7,692 nucleotides of DNA from Promethearchaeota archaeon (GTDB lineage Archaea > Asgardarchaeota > Lokiarchaeia > Sigynarchaeales > SOKP01). Where the stretch lies: NCBI GenBank assembly GCA_004524425.1, contig SDNN01000138.1, positions 1 through 7,692 on the forward strand. Reading direction: 5' to 3'. The notes under the pieces are model-generated. The model ran no database searches, was not told the origin of the DNA, and saw only the letters and a list, made by a program, of their open reading frames with translations. The number at the start of each line of letters is the position of its first letter. The first letter of the stretch is position 1. This document shows positions 2,337 through 7,457 of the stretch, piece by piece. The translations under genes and the position numbers were made by a program.

Positions 2337-2894
2337 TTAATAATCAAGGGAAAAGGTACTTTTAATCCAATTTTCAATATCCTGACTAGAATTCGATAAG
2401 GGTTTAGCACCTTTCGAACTATCTTTATATCGATATTCTTCCATTTTTTTCGATAAATCCCTTGTTGATATCACGAATCCATTTTCTAATTTTATCTCAA
2501 TTACCGTCCTATAGGCTATTGGTCTCTGAAAGCCCATGTGGACGTACATCTCGTCAATGAAATCTTTTGCCAACAAGATTCCTCCCGTAAAGTTAGCTTT
2601 TAAATTCAAATTATTATAAGAAAAATCAAAAATTGAAGTACCGACTTCCCTAATCTTTTGGGGTTCAACACCATTAATATTCGGAGGATTTTCTGCATTT
2701 AACAAAATCCTATCTAAAACTAAATTATCATCAATTAAGATGTATCTCATTACGTGACCTCGCCAACATGCAGTACATCTAGAATAAGAATTCATGCCAA
2801 AATCTTCAGGGCGGTACAATCCTTTCCCCCTAACCCCTACAATGGAAAACTCTTCCCCTTCATGTATGAGGCTGTCAGGAATTTGCGCCGTCAT
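2337..2894 (-). CDS. Conserved-looking hypothetical protein with CxxC motif, co-transcribed with the TrmB-like regulator
   Basis: A 185-residue soluble protein with no signal peptide or membrane segment. Distinct segments are MTAQIPDSL at the start, a GEEFSIVGVRGKGLY stretch (13-27), C40-T-A-C43-W-R-G-H47, a mostly beta middle (48-104), and LLAKDFIDEMYVHMGFQRP (107-125), then a polar, probably disordered tail. From memory, bacterial uncharacterised proteins share this start, the TACWRG element and the AKDF-YVHMGFQ element, so it seems to belong to a widespread unnamed family. No biochemical role is known to me. C40, C43 and H47 could bind a metal, but in the family as I recall it the first cysteine is not fixed. 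The ATG lies 12 nt after the regulator's stop, with AGAGGA 6 nt before it, so translation from the same mRNA is expected. Its function may depend on the regulator upstream. Confidence 0.88.
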   Translation of the reverse strand: MTAQIPDSLIHEGEEFSIVGVRGKGLYRPEDFGMNSYSRCTACWRGHVMRYILIDDNLVLDRILLNAENPPNINGVEPQKIREVGTSIFDFSYNNLNLKANFTGGILLAKDFIDEMYVHMGFQRPIAYRTVIEIKLENGFVISTRDLSKKMEEYRYKDSSKGAKPLSNSSQDIENWIKSTFSLDY

Positions 2895-2906: not shown

Positions 2907-4208
2907 TTATTCTAATTTCAAGATTATATTCATTAGAATTGGAAACTTCTCTTCTGAACCCCAAATAACATGGATTTTATTTTCCATGGGAATGGCAACT
3001 AATTTCGCAGCAATTATCCATTCGGTTCCAATCATTTTTGCAGTTTTACTTCCTTCCCTAAATTTTATATACATGATTGCTCCTGAATATTCGCGAATCT
3101 TGGTATTCTCAAATTTGAGGTCCTCAAGATCAGGATTAGTAAATTCCTCGATATCCTCATCAATTTGAGTGCTTAACTTCAATCTTTCACATGCTAACTG
3201 AAGCGCGGCTTTATTAAAGACATCATGCCCTATAGAGCTGCTATATTCAAAAATTAATAGACCACAATCTTTTTCCTCGCCTGTGATGCCAAGAGTCTTG
3301 AAATTTAAACCTTTTTCTAATAATGATTTGGAATCCTTGTCTATCTCGGCCAGATCGATCCACCCATTCTCCAAGGAATCACCCATCACGAAACGAAAAC
3401 TCTTTAGAATCTTTAGTTCCTCTTCTCTTTGCGCGATTCTCTCATCAAGTATGCTGGTTAATGGTCTTGCGATGAATGATTGAGCACGTTGATCTGGTTC
3501 TGGAAGCTTCACAACCCAACCTTTATCAATGAGACGCTCCAAAATGCGATAAATCGTGGTTCTCTTAATGTCCAATTCTTCATTTATACTGCCCACCGAA
3601 TCACCTTCCTTGCCTTTTCTTAGAAAAGCTAAATATACTTGCGCCTCTTCTATGCTTAATCCGAATCTAAGCAGTCCTAATTCCTGCAAATTATTAGTAT
3701 CGTCAAGTAAAATCCGTGGAGTCGCCCATTTCAATTCCTCAACCCTGCCTAATGATGTCTCTGGTTTAAGATACGGTTCTTTTGAACTAAGATCTAAAAC
3801 TGTTCTTGCAGCGTCAACTAATCCATCCGTTATTTTACCCTCAGCTTGGATCCTACAAAATATCATTCTTTCGTCATCCTTGAAACCCACAACACTTCCT
3901 TTATCATTCAAGTTAGTGGCAATAAAGCGCTCGGGAGTGATTTGAAGAATGACGTATTCTACACCAGCAATTGTAATTCTTCTTTCTTTCATTTCTAACC
4001 AAGCTGAACTTAATTCCTCTAAATCATTCGATAGGTCCCAATTTTTTGTGGAATAAACTATAGACGGTATGATATTAATTACATTTCCTTTATCATCTCT
4101 CTCTAAGGTGATCTCCATGAGAACTACTGCATTTATCTTTGATTTAGAATCCAATAATGATTGGGAAATAGTCTTGTAGTCTATCATTTTACGTGAATTT
4201 TTACTCAT
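2907..4208 (-). CDS. TrmB-like winged-helix regulator with roadblock/longin-like N-terminal region
   Basis: A 433-residue, apparently three-part protein. Residues 9-140 look like an alpha/beta profilin-like fold in roadblock/LC7 or longin order: helix (13-22), strands (25-34 and 46-54), helix (58-73), strands (76-98 and 104-121), helix (126-140). Residues 174-248 form a TrmB-type winged helix: GLSIEEAQVYLAFL, then SINEELDIKRTTIYRILERLIDKGWV as the recognition-helix region, followed by a wing. Residues 249-275 are a charged helix resembling the TrmB dimerisation coil. Residues 280-433 are a mixed alpha/beta C-terminal domain, perhaps a ligand sensor, with no recognisable sugar-binding motif. 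No SD precedes the ATG, but a TATA-like box centred about 27 nt upstream fits a leaderless transcript from residue 1; M8 (ATG at 4187) is the alternative. DNA binding is well supported. The roadblock/longin reading is inferred from secondary-structure order alone. Confidence 0.87.
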   Translation of the reverse strand: MSKNSRKMIDYKTISQSLLDSKSKINAVVLMEITLERDDKGNVINIIPSIVYSTKNWDLSNDLEELSSAWLEMKERRITIAGVEYVILQITPERFIATNLNDKGSVVGFKDDERMIFCRIQAEGKITDGLVDAARTVLDLSSKEPYLKPETSLGRVEELKWATPRILLDDTNNLQELGLLRFGLSIEEAQVYLAFLRKGKEGDSVGSINEELDIKRTTIYRILERLIDKGWVVKLPEPDQRAQSFIARPLTSILDERIAQREEELKILKSFRFVMGDSLENGWIDLAEIDKDSKSLLEKGLNFKTLGITGEEKDCGLLIFEYSSSIGHDVFNKAALQLACERLKLSTQIDEDIEEFTNPDLEDLKFENTKIREYSGAIMYIKFREGSKTAKMIGTEWIIAAKLVAIPMENKIHVIWGSEEKFPILMNIILKLE

Positions 4209-4301: not shown

Positions 4302-4535
4302 TTATAAGCGAGCATTTTTAAATCTCAGTTTCAATTCATCCATCAATCTGGGCATCTCTTTTCTTTCTTTTGAACGCTGAATTTCAGTGAAATCCTTTCC
4401 TAAGATGACATTAGTGGTTTTTTGCCCAGACTTGTTAATGATGTCCATGTTGTTTTCAGATAAGACAATGCAGGGAATTCCATCAACAATCTTGATGATT
4501 ACCAAATAATTCACCTCGAGTTTGCTTAAAAACAT
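4302..4535 (-). CDS. Small protein of unknown function overlapping the actin stop codon
   Basis: A 77-residue ORF overlapping the last 10 bases of the actin gene in another frame. The ATG at 4535 has no convincing Shine-Dalgarno. A second start is at least as likely: TTG at 4505, residue 12, preceded by GAGGTGA with a 5-nt spacer and lying 20 nt after the actin stop, which would give 66 residues starting before [11 protein letters not shown]. The first half suggests a beta hairpin ([19 protein letters not shown]). The second half is a strongly charged amphipathic helix (about 50-75) ending [10 protein letters not shown]. No membrane segment, signal or known domain is recognised, and I see no clear WH2 or other actin-binding motif. 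Tight linkage makes an accessory role for actin plausible, but that is inference from position only. Confidence 0.72.
4511..4517 (-). promoter_or_regulatory. Shine-Dalgarno site pointing to an internal TTG start in the small ORF
   Basis: GAGGTGA, a near-perfect anti-SD match and like the AGGTGA before actin, lies 5 nt upstream of TTG 4505. It has no other use in this position, so it argues that translation of the small protein begins at 4505 rather than at ATG 4535. Confidence 0.5.
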
Positions 4536-5665
4536 CGATGGACTATCGCCGGTCCCATTTCTTTATACTCTCGCCGGGTTATCCACATTTTATGAAATGT
4601 TTTCAATGATGCCAAGATAGAACCTCCTATCCACACGGAATACATTCTTTCTGGAGGGGCGACAATCCGAACATCCACGGAATCTGGAATTTGTTCCTTT
4701 ATTTCTTTCGTTAATCGTTCTTTGATTCCTGGAAACATCGTGGAACCTCCAGATAAGACAATATTACTATATAGATCCCTTCGCAAGTCCACGTCACATT
4801 CATTAATGGCTCCTACTACCACGTCATCCAGCGCATCGAGTTCCTTACCAACTACAGAAGGATTGAAAAACACCTCTGGAGCTAAAAACCTCTCGACCCC
4901 CACGCTTATCGTCTCTCCATCGGGCAGCATGAAACTTTTTTCCATTCCTGCCACCTTTTTGGAAAGTAACATCTCTTTTTCGGGATCCATTGCCACGTAG
5001 CAGAGCTTTTCCTTAATATCTCGTACTATCTCCTTTTCTGCTGAAGATATCAAGGACACACCCCTCTGGCGCAACATTCTCTGCAAGTACGTGGTAATAT
5101 CCCTTCCCGCAAGATCAATCTTTTCTATGGCGTGAGACAACGCGAATCCCTCGAAAATGGGTACAATATGTGACACTCCATCTCCAATATCAATCACACA
5201 ACCCGTCGTACGACCTGAAGCATAAAGAGATAACACGGCCTGAGTGGCAACATATAATGCTGGCACGTTAAAAGTCTCAAACATGATCTCCCCCATTTTT
5301 TCTCTGTTTTGTCGCGGATTCAATGGCGCTTCGGTTAATAGTACAGGATGTTCTGAAGGATCCACTCTCAGATCCGTGTAAAACGTGTAATGCCAAATCT
5401 TTTCCATGGACGTCCAATCATCCACCACGCCATGCTCAATCGGAAAATTGAGATGCATTAATCCCTTGAGCTCCATTGCTTCCTCCCCTATGTAATAATC
5501 TCGTGTAAAATGCTTATATTCAGGAAAGATGTTTTCATATTTTGGCTTGCCGATTAACGTGGGAAAAACTGAACGAGGTTGATCCTCTCCCGCAAAACCG
5601 CTTTTGGTGATTCCCGTTCCGTTATCTAATATAATTCCCTTTGAGAAAACTTTATCATTTTCCAT
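4526..5665 (-). CDS. Actin (Asgard/Loki-type actin)
   Basis: A 379-residue actin, against about 375 in eukaryotes; it should bind ATP and polymerise into cytoskeletal filaments. Phosphate loop 1 is D14-N-G-T-G18 with K21 (actin D11, S14, K18). Catalytic and Mg/nucleotide residues are present as Q142, D159, D162 and H166 (actin Q137, D154, D157, H161) in [18 protein letters not shown] and IDIGDGVSH. Other hallmarks are [28 protein letters not shown] (here KEIVRD), [31 protein letters not shown] and a C-terminal GPAIVHRCF, one residue shorter than eukaryotic HRKCF. The D-loop region (about 40-58) is divergent and two residues longer, and lacks GVMVGM. No introns. The ATG has GGAAGGTGA 9 nt upstream. 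The gene looks richer in G and C than its AT-rich surroundings. Close similarity to eukaryotic actin over the full length sets it apart from MreB, ParM and crenactin. Confidence 0.97.
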
Positions 5666-5674
5666 AATTTTCGT

Positions 5675-5683
5675 TCACCTTCC
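5675..5683 (-). promoter_or_regulatory. Ribosome binding site of actin
   Basis: GGAAGGTGA, containing the consensus AGGTGA, 9 nt before the actin ATG. It fixes the start and shows that this organism uses Shine-Dalgarno initiation for this gene. Confidence 0.75.
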
Positions 5684-5868: not shown

Positions 5869-5876
5869 TATTTAAA
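5869..5876 (-). promoter_or_regulatory. Candidate distal TATA box for the actin operon
   Basis: TTTAAATA on the minus strand, a few bases downstream of the palindrome at 5880-5899. A start site near 5846 would leave a 180-nt leader before the actin ATG. AT-rich sequence nearer the gene (about 5690-5720) could hold another promoter, so the choice is tentative. Confidence 0.4.
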
Positions 5877-5879
5877 TGT

Positions 5880-5899
5880 TTGTCACGATCCCGTGACAA
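5880..5899. promoter_or_regulatory. Palindromic operator-like inverted repeat upstream of actin
   Basis: TTGTCACG-ATCC-CGTGACAA: perfect 8-bp arms around 4 bases. It stands out as GC-containing sequence inside very AT-rich DNA. On the minus strand it directly precedes a TATA-like box, in the place of the BRE element, which suits a dimeric repressor or activator that controls TFB access. A transcript hairpin is possible, but no U-tract follows. Confidence 0.55.
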
Positions 5900-6209: not shown

Positions 6210-6515
6210 CTAATAAGCCTCTATTTCCATTTCTTTACTGAAATCTTTACCTTCAACGACATGCATCTCATGAATTGCTTCTATTACTACTCCTCCACTT
6301 TTTTCAAATACTTCATGGATTGACTCGGGATCTTTTGCATTCCACTCACAGTACAACTTTTCCTGTTCAGGTACAATCCAGCTTCTTATCCAATCGGCAT
6401 CCTCCGAACAATTTGATTTTAAGGTTTTAAACACTACATTCTTCTCGGGAGCGAGTTTTAATATTCCTTCTAAAGCTCTTCTTTTCATGGGATGAATTAC
6501 AATATATTTTGGCAT
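6210..6515 (-). CDS. DUF4242/SCO4226-like small protein
   Basis: A 101-residue soluble protein. The pattern MPKYIVIHPM, then DADWIRSWIVPEQEKLYCEWNAKD (39-62), PESIHEVFEKSGG and a final strand IEAIHEMHVVEG matches my recollection of the DUF4242 family: a ferredoxin-like alpha/beta fold of about 80-100 residues, with a W-x-x-S-x-V/I element and a YC-x-(Y/W)-x-A-x-D/P element. The Streptomyces member SCO4226 is described as a nickel-responsive protein. Whether this copy binds metal is unknown; H8, C36, C56 and the H81/H84 region are the residues to test. The ATG at 6515 has a very strong Shine-Dalgarno. It appears to be a single-gene unit: 217 bp separate it from vapC and a hairpin follows it. 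The family call rests on memory of the motif, with no alignment. Confidence 0.82.
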   Translation of the reverse strand: MPKYIVIHPMKRRALEGILKLAPEKNVVFKTLKSNCSEDADWIRSWIVPEQEKLYCEWNAKDPESIHEVFEKSGGVVIEAIHEMHVVEGKDFSKEMEIEAY

Positions 6516-6732: not shown

Positions 6733-7221
6733 CTACTTTTTGAGATATTTTACTTTTAATTTTTTAATAGAATCTTTAAATTTATCATCAGAGGGATTAA
6801 GTATCGGGATTTTCGTTAACTTTTTGAAATCGCTGTCAAATGTGATGAAAGCATCGACTTTTACATTAGTTGCGCATGCTATATGGATTGCATCTGCAGC
6901 ATAAAGATTTTGAGAGAATATAAACTTTCGACTAGCCATGATTAGGATCATTTTTACAGGTACCAAAATAAGTTTCTCTTTTTGAGCATACTCACCTATT
7001 TGGCTTAAAAACAAATCTAGGGCTATTTGGGCATCCTTTTCTCCAATTCTATCCAAATTAACTTGTTTTTTGAATGCTCGAAACATTTCAGCAATTGTCC
7101 ACTCAGAAGTGATTCCAGGAAATTCAGCTTCAATTTGCTTTAAAAGCCAATCTGCAGCAAGTCTATCCTCAATTGGGCAATAAGCATTATAAAACACATT
7201 TGTGTCAATGTAAATAGCCAT
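6733..7221 (-). CDS. vapC: VapC-type PIN-domain ribonuclease toxin
   Basis: A 162-residue PIN-domain protein, the toxin of a VapBC pair. PIN toxins are Mg/Mn-dependent endoribonucleases, commonly cutting tRNA or rRNA. The acidic active-site set is complete: D6 in YIDTNVF, E45 in EWTIAEMFRAF, D110 in YAADAIHIA, and D129/D131 in ITFDSDF. The start is placed at ATG 7221, giving MAIYIDTN, the usual PIN beginning. The frame stays open further upstream to an ATG at 7302, but those 27 residues would lie wholly inside vapB and resemble no PIN sequence. The ATG shares its A with the vapB stop (TAATG), and GAGAGGA lies 6 nt upstream inside vapB, so the two are translationally coupled. The C-terminal tail is lysine-rich (KKLKVKYLKK). 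It is probably held inactive by VapB. Target RNA unknown. Confidence 0.9.
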   Translation of the reverse strand: MAIYIDTNVFYNAYCPIEDRLAADWLLKQIEAEFPGITSEWTIAEMFRAFKKQVNLDRIGEKDAQIALDLFLSQIGEYAQKEKLILVPVKMILIMASRKFIFSQNLYAADAIHIACATNVKVDAFITFDSDFKKLTKIPILNPSDDKFKDSIKKLKVKYLKK

Positions 7222-7457
7222 TATTCTTCCTCTCGCACCGTGCGGATTGCTTCTACTCCATTCTGAAGCGGCCTCTTCTGTTTCTGCTTTAAATATTCCC
7301 ATAATTCTTCTCTCGACCGAATTCCCAATCGTTCTCGTATATATGAAAAAATTCCCCCCCGAACCGCTTCAGATCGATTTTTAATAACGCCACTTTTAAC
7401 AAGTTGATCTAACCATTCTATTAATTCTTCATCTAAGGAAACAGAAATAGTTGTCAT
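7221..7457 (-). CDS. vapB: VapB-type ribbon-helix-helix antitoxin
   Basis: A 78-residue antitoxin partner of the PIN toxin. Residues 2-45 fit a ribbon-helix-helix DNA-binding domain: beta strand TTISVSLD, helix EELIEWLDQLVKSG, then NRSEAVRGGIFSYIRERLG as the second helix. Such proteins dimerise, bind operators in their own promoter and neutralise the toxin through the C-terminal region, here about 48-78, charged and ending RTVREEE. The ATG at 7457 has no Shine-Dalgarno, but a TATA-like box about 30 nt upstream suggests leaderless or very short-leader transcription. Its stop overlaps the vapC start by one base. Family assignment is firm; autoregulation is inferred from the family. Confidence 0.88.
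   Translation of the reverse strand: MTTISVSLDEELIEWLDQLVKSGVIKNRSEAVRGGIFSYIRERLGIRSREELWEYLKQKQKRPLQNGVEAIRTVREEE
7228..7234 (-). promoter_or_regulatory. Ribosome binding site deciding the vapC start
   Basis: GAGAGGA inside the end of vapB, 6 nt before ATG 7221. It supports the short vapC form and coupled translation of toxin to antitoxin. Confidence 0.6.

What the first reader, a model, noticed from the sequence alone, without database searches (positions are those of the whole stretch)
4526..5665. Eukaryote-like actin in an archaeal gene setting
The product keeps the full actin length, all nucleotide and catalytic residues (Q142, D159, D162, H166) and eukaryotic signatures such as [13 protein letters not shown] and [12 protein letters not shown]. 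The gene itself has a Shine-Dalgarno and an overlapping neighbour. This points to an Asgard archaeon and a filament-forming cytoskeletal actin.
Basis: partly seen in the sequence, partly recalled or inferred. Interest (0 to 1): 0.8.

Follow-up and report, generated by a model that had tools for sequence, protein, structure and literature searches.

The report
Archaeal actin with profilin-fused gene switch
This piece of archaeal DNA carries an actin gene very like ours, followed by a gene that joins an actin-binding-type protein (profilin) to a DNA-binding switch whose likely docking site lies in front of the actin gene, suggesting that these cells may sense their own actin to control actin production.

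The parts
4526..5665 (-). B-type lokiactin, 379 aa
4302..4505 (-). ORF77 (likely 67 aa from TTG 4505 with SD GAGGTGA at 4511-4517; 77 aa if ATG 4535 is used): small protein family '[14 protein letters not shown] ... LxDELKxxF', present in 9 of the 20 B-type loci scanned, always just after actin; in the 80 loci no relative was found elsewhere
   Evidence: AF2 model beta-hairpin plus long helix, mean pLDDT 69.7
2907..4208 (-). Profilin-TrmB fusion regulator, 433 aa
3777..4184 (-). Profilin domain of the fusion (about residues 9-144)
3498..3668 (-). TrmB winged helix-turn-helix (residues 181-237)
   Evidence: Pfam TrmB E 2.1e-11; 45 of 45 relatives scanned match
2910..3308 (-). C-terminal domain of the fusion (about residues 301-433), also present in a TrmB paralogue without profilin (L063:9267-10148)
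5881..5898 (.). Operator-like palindrome TGTCAC-N6-GTGACA
5869..5876 (-). TATA box TTTAAATA, 4 nt after the palindrome, about 200 nt before the actin ATG
5675..5683 (-). Shine-Dalgarno-like GGAAGGTGA of the actin gene
   Evidence: sequence
2337..2894 (-). 185-aa protein without Pfam/NCBIfam match; relative directly after the fusion in L066, L120 and L121
1498..2208 (-). 236-aa protein, hydrophobic and probably membrane-spanning (by eye); relative after the fusion in L056, L061, L120 and L121
2..1342 (-). Molybdopterin oxidoreductase (cut by the window end); similar gene further along in L120 and L121; flank, probably not part of the system

Best explanation
The window holds an autoregulated actin operon of a Lokiarchaeia archaeon: a lokiactin paralogue (B-type), a small helper protein (ORF77) and a dedicated transcription regulator made of a profilin domain fused to a TrmB winged helix. 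SHOWN by computation: the gene order, its conservation, the predicted profilin fold and profilin sequence homology, and a palindromic operator-like site beside the TATA box of the B-actin promoter that is nearly unique in each genome. INFERRED: the fusion protein binds that palindrome as a dimer through its TrmB domain; because a site arm covers the BRE position next to the TATA box it most likely represses; and the profilin domain binds monomeric actin, so that the level of free actin sets how strongly the operon is repressed (most likely negative feedback with actin monomer as co-repressor). It would work like a one-protein version of the eukaryotic G-actin/MRTF/SRF loop, without common descent.
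Against: No binding experiment. The profilin domain is the least conserved of the five stretches compared (mean pairwise identity 41% against 63% for the wHTH), and its profile scores 207-220 aa profilin-like proteins of unknown activity at 75-132 bits while the whole-fusion profile gives the crystallised Asgard profilins 35-54 bits, so actin binding is not assured. One full-length fusion (G117, L121) has no actin beside it. L081/L173 has a truncated actin and no palindrome in 7.3 kb; L055 ends 54 nt upstream. L076 has spacing N4; L048, L051, L058, L071 depart by two letters from the consensus. In L058, L063 and L092 the best palindrome lies 13-14 nt from the TATA box with a further half-site between. 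Nine of the 19 fusion genomes have no exact core match at all. In the window alone the match count is not unusual. pTM is 0.36, so the domain arrangement is unknown. Activation is not excluded: TrmBL1 activates from upstream sites. The contact-patch test is weak, because actin's conserved regions may include it anyway.
Confidence: 0.5

Rival explanations
1. The fusion binds the operator and controls B-actin, but its profilin domain senses something other than actin monomers (proline-rich peptide, inositol-type lipid, another protein) or serves only in dimerisation.
For: Profilin domain less conserved than the rest; high-scoring relatives are 207-220 aa proteins of unknown activity; passages of PMC8410842 report lipid and polyproline binding by some Asgard profilins.
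Against: Linkage to an actin gene at 19 of 20 places; actin's recalled profilin-contact patch is well kept in B-actin.
Confidence: 0.27
2. DNA-actin adaptor as in ParR/ParM or TubR/TubZ: the fusion clusters on a centromere-like site and tethers DNA to B-actin filaments for segregation, autoregulation being secondary.
For: Cytoskeletal filament gene plus DNA-binding protein in one operon with a site before the filament gene is the par-type layout (recalled); several promoters carry a third half-site, about 11 bp from the next in L051, L063, L071 and L092.
Against: Only two or three exact half-sites per promoter, nearly always one place per genome, an arm locked to the TATA box in 18 of 18; B loci lie on long contigs such as 1.28 Mb and 0.33 Mb; profilin normally binds monomers and barbed ends (recalled).
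Confidence: 0.12
3. Ordinary cytoskeletal lokiactin; the TrmB-like neighbour is unrelated to it.
For: The canonical A-type lokiactin loci show no such neighbour; one fusion lacks an adjacent actin.
Against: Linkage at 19 of 20 places, profilin domain, and 10 of 11 genome-wide exact sites at this promoter.
Confidence: 0.08
4. Eukaryotic contaminant or chimeric assembly.
For: 60% identity to yeast actin.
Against: Grouped with Lokiarchaeia lokiactins with full support; nearly the same gene order in an independent 1.28 Mb contig (L120).
Confidence: 0.01

Closest known systems
Lokiactin (canonical, A-type; e.g. Ca. Lokiarchaeum ossiferum UYP47028.1)
   Same: Same family; A and B are 80-85% identical within a genome in the 7 genomes compared; conserved catalytic sites.
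   Different: B-type is a paralogue that evolves faster (mean pairwise identity 82% against 98% for A-type), with its own regulator and promoter site. The paper reports one lokiactin and three ARP-like homologues in L. ossiferum (passages).
Asgard profilins (LokiProfilin-1/-2, OdinProfilin, Thor profilin)
   Same: Fold and sequence profile.
   Different: Here fused to a DNA-binding domain; 20-26% identity in the structural alignments; LokiProfilin-1 and -2 carry a six-residue insertion relative to the fusion profile (alignment).
TrmB/TrmBL1 family regulators of Thermococcales
   Same: TrmB wHTH; palindromic operator near BRE/TATA, TATCAC-N5-GTGATA versus TGTCAC-N6-GTGACA.
   Different: Profilin at the N-terminus; the apparent target is an actin operon and the regulon nearly a single site, rather than sugar genes.
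G-actin/MRTF/SRF circuit of animals (recalled; starts of abstracts)
   Same: Proposed logic: actin monomer level controls transcription of actin genes.
   Different: MRTF uses RPEL motifs and SRF (recalled); no shared domains seen. Analogy only.
ParM/ParR/parC and TubZ/TubR (recalled)
   Same: Filament protein plus DNA-binding autoregulator in one operon.
   Different: Long contigs, a site locked to the TATA box with two or three half-sites, eukaryote-type actin and a profilin domain.

Membership tests
Lokiactin (Asgard actin) | Full-length actin domain with conserved nucleotide and catalytic sites | tested here: met
Lokiactin (Asgard actin) | Phylogenetic placement with Asgard lokiactins, outside eukaryotic actins | tested here: met
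   (88 rows; Arps, crenactin and MreB were not in the tree)
Lokiactin (Asgard actin) | Forms F-actin-like filaments | not testable with these tools
   needs purified protein
Profilin (domain of the fusion) | Profilin fold | tested here: met
   predicted model
Profilin (domain of the fusion) | Detectable sequence homology to known profilins | tested here: met
   Pfam PF00235 in 3 of 45 members only, not in the window's own protein
Profilin (domain of the fusion) | Binds monomeric actin | not testable with these tools
   no complex prediction or assay available
TrmB-family transcription regulator | TrmB winged helix | tested here: met
TrmB-family transcription regulator | Palindromic operator near BRE/TATA of the target promoter | tested here: met
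   (site found; binding not shown)
TrmB-family transcription regulator | Sugar-binding C-terminal domain | tested here: inconclusive
   no Pfam family above its cut-off reported for the C-terminal part; the structure rows listed were filled by the profilin domain
ParMRC/TubZRC-type partition system | Centromere of many repeats beside the operon | tested here: not met
   two or three exact half-sites at the promoters; no tandem array in the window's upstream region
MRTF-SRF circuit | Homologous components (RPEL coactivator, MADS-box factor) | tested here: not met
   Pfam at E 0.1 shows TrmB/MarR-type wHTH, no MADS or RPEL family, for the nine window proteins; functional analogy only

The most novel reading that the evidence does not exclude
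Asgard archaea evolved a one-component actin-sensing transcription factor: profilin fused to a winged helix reads the free actin pool and controls, through a virtually single-site regulon, the operon that makes a dedicated actin paralogue, so cytoskeleton-to-gene feedback predates or parallels the eukaryotic G-actin/MRTF/SRF loop.
Probability: 0.5. Interest if true: 0.93.

Novelty: new variant of a known kind. Interest (0 to 1): 0.82.

Why it matters
Whether the archaeal relatives of eukaryotes regulate their actin cytoskeleton, and how, is an open question; gelsolins and profilins are known there, and I saw no description of gene control by actin in what I could search. A 433-aa protein, one 18-bp site and one actin make the question testable in vitro: does actin monomer change DNA binding? 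It also shows a second, specialised lokiactin beside the canonical one, and a profilin put to a use not mentioned in the profilin paper whose passages I read.

Tried and rejected
Roadblock/longin fold for the regulator's N-terminus was my first guess from the sequence; the structure search gave profilin instead. A viral link for ORF77: 7 stretches matched a pattern in viral contigs, none was a relative. WH2-like or RPEL-like motifs in ORF77 or the TrmB linker were considered by eye only and not pursued. ORF77 gave no Pfam or NCBIfam family; its model is weak and was not put through a fold search; its family was not searched in whole genomes. A wider regulon: of the other hits, G002:C28 lies inside a short ORF, and around G137:C13, G004:C244 and G125:C18 I saw, by eye, no cytoskeletal gene; of the five control-genome hits only G106 was opened. 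The 27 hits in G005 look like a repeated element and were left out of the 13-of-16 count. L060 was a weak TrmB hit (25% over 163 residues) and was not counted as a fusion. L055 and L081 were not evaluable for the operator. Actin start positions in several B loci were called by script at the first alignable residue, so TATA-to-start distances (60-224 nt) are approximate. Codon-level selection tests and a complex prediction were not run. Literature searches were seen as listings; searches matched 1,471 and 2,932 papers, of which 20 and 15 were listed, so they prove little. The narrow ones are profilin + TrmB + archaea: one paper, a review not opened; profilin + winged helix + Asgard + actin: none. 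Akil and Robinson 2018 was not read; it is known to me only through citing papers and recall.

Full report
OBSERVATION. The catalytic and nucleotide-site residues checked are kept, apart from S14T, T303S and K336M relative to yeast, which the A-type copies share. No whole genome is held for the window; the protein database lists this sequence on a 7692-base contig, so the window is a complete short contig.

PLACEMENT. The best database relatives outside eukaryotes, at 74-88% identity, are Promethearchaeota/Asgard MAG proteins where an organism is named, apart from one marine sediment metagenome (120 of 7985 listed). A scan of genome contigs gave 80 loci, mostly Lokiarchaeota/Lokiarchaeia by record title (217 relatives found, best 80 kept). 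In a tree of 88 actins the window groups with L120 (100/98) inside a clade of 19 B-type actins (100/99) that lies among Lokiarchaeia actins; the 7 eukaryotic actins form a separate 100/100 branch. The tree is midpoint-rooted for drawing and has no Arps or crenactin, so it does not speak on the origin of eukaryotic actin.

TWO LOKIACTINS. Gene neighbourhoods split the loci in two. The A-type is nearly frozen (mean pairwise identity 98%, 26 distinct sequences) and has a recurring set of neighbours. The B-type (82%, 19 sequences) is followed on the same strand by a TrmB-like gene. Of the 80 loci, 14 carry the full fusion; by record title 13 of these 14 come from genomes that also gave an A-type locus. 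In the 7 genomes compared, A and B are 80-85% identical. Whether the window's own genome has an A-type copy is unknown.

LINKAGE. Full-length fusions (E at most 1e-60) occur at 20 places in 19 of 227 Asgard genomes. An actin is the preceding long gene on the same strand at 19 of the 20, truncated in L081; in the exception, G117, an unrelated divergent gene lies there. L120 repeats the window's order actin, ORF77, fusion, 185-aa protein, 236-aa protein, and then, after three further ORFs (226, 279 and 56 aa), the molybdopterin oxidoreductase.

ORF77. The small ORF after actin is a conserved family: relatives at about 30% identity lie just downstream of B-actin in 9 of the 20 B loci scanned, in tandem duplicate in L056. 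Among the ORFs of the 80 loci and the window none was found elsewhere; whole genomes were not searched. The model is a beta-hairpin and a long helix, mean pLDDT 69.7. Its likely start is TTG 4505. A helper of the actin or of the fusion is my guess.

OPERATOR-LIKE SITE. Upstream of B-actin in the window lies TGTCAC-N6-GTGACA, then 4 nt, then TTTAAATA. In the window it is the only match with up to three mismatches, and it is exact; one match is not more than chance gives at that tolerance (1.42 expected). The comparative evidence carries the claim. At least 10 of 12 letters match in 17 of 18 evaluable B promoters (11 of them 12/12) against 0 of 61 other lokiactin promoters, whose best is 9; of 3800 mononucleotide shuffles 30 reached 10 and none 11. 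The remaining B locus, L076, has GTCAC-N4-GTGAC. An arm lies 3-4 nt before the TATA box (TTTAAATA or TTTATATA) in 18 of 18; the same composite is in 0 of the 61 controls. In 15 of the 18 this arm belongs to a best-scoring 18-mer; in L058, L063 and L092 the best one lies 13-14 nt from the TATA box and a further half-site fills the gap. Genome-wide, GTCAC-N6-GTGAC occurs 11 times in 10 of the 19 fusion genomes, 10 of them at the B-actin promoter (places compared); the reversed control pattern occurs twice. In 29 chosen genomes with a canonical lokiactin but no fusion found there are 5 sites in 4 genomes, reversed control 6. One of the five, in G106, precedes the first codons of an ORF at a contig end and continues into DNA like that upstream of L048, L050, L051 and L071, so it is very probably a cut B locus. 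Half-site plus TATA gave 13 of 16 hits at this promoter outside G005, and 27 in G005; 4 hits in 3 of the 29 controls, one being the G106 place; reversed controls 3 and 4.

MECHANISM. TrmB proteins bind palindromes beside BRE/TATA; TrmBL1's site is TATCAC-N5-GTGATA, it activates from upstream and represses from downstream, and TrmB over BRE/TATA represses (passages of PMC4158304 and PMC4706686). A site whose arm ends 3-4 nt before TATA covers the BRE position, which favours repression. The profilin domain offers an actin-binding type of surface on the same polypeptide; B-actin keeps the recalled profilin-contact sites better than average (95.0% against 84.2%; 2.45% of random site sets do as well). 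I therefore propose feedback from free actin monomers onto the operon. The actin-sensing step is the weakest: the profilin domain is the least conserved stretch (41% against 63% for the wHTH).

NOVELTY. Lokiactin, Asgard profilins and TrmB regulators are known. I saw no profilin-HTH fusion or actin-linked regulator in the listings of searches (partial listings for several, above all 50 and 71) or in passages of PMC9834061, PMC8410842 and PMC12993045. The library lacks most subscription papers and all bioRxiv preprints.

Noticed in passing
window 6733-7457 (-): A ribbon-helix-helix protein overlaps a PIN-domain protein: a VapBC-like toxin-antitoxin pair by layout.
   Followed up: no
window 6210-6515 (-): SCO4226-like (nickel-responsive type) small protein, Pfam E 2.5e-11.
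   Followed up: no
upstream ends of the actin ORFs in L050, L053, L066, L076: The B-actin reading frame seems to begin with an ATT codon (AGGTGG... ATT TCA GT...) where relatives have ATG in MSVNGD: a possible ATT start.
   Followed up: partly
L136, ORF from about 1123 (+): A profilin domain at the start of a 443-aa ORF whose remainder looks, by eye, like a methyltransferase: another profilin fusion.
   Followed up: partly
L137, L139, L140, L141: Profilin-like proteins of 207-220 aa with a similar, helical-looking C-terminus, close in profile score to the fusion's profilin domain.
   Followed up: partly
L063:9267-10148, L120:4326-5165: TrmB paralogues of 293 and 279 aa without the profilin domain lie close to the fusion cluster; they suggest that profilin was added to an older regulator.
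   Followed up: no
genome G005: Half-site plus TATA recurs 27 times, 25 of them as GTGACAAGATTTAAATA and 12 within 106 bases of a contig start: probably a repeated element.
   Followed up: no
L121: A fusion cluster without adjacent actin and ORF77; a divergent gene, by eye aldehyde-ferredoxin-oxidoreductase-like, sits there.
   Followed up: partly
L056:7259-7663 and 9104-10588: ORF77 and the 236-aa membrane-like protein are each duplicated in tandem.
   Followed up: no
A-type lokiactin loci among L001-L080: The canonical lokiactin is nearly invariant (98% mean identity over 26 distinct sequences) while its paralogue drifts.
   Followed up: partly
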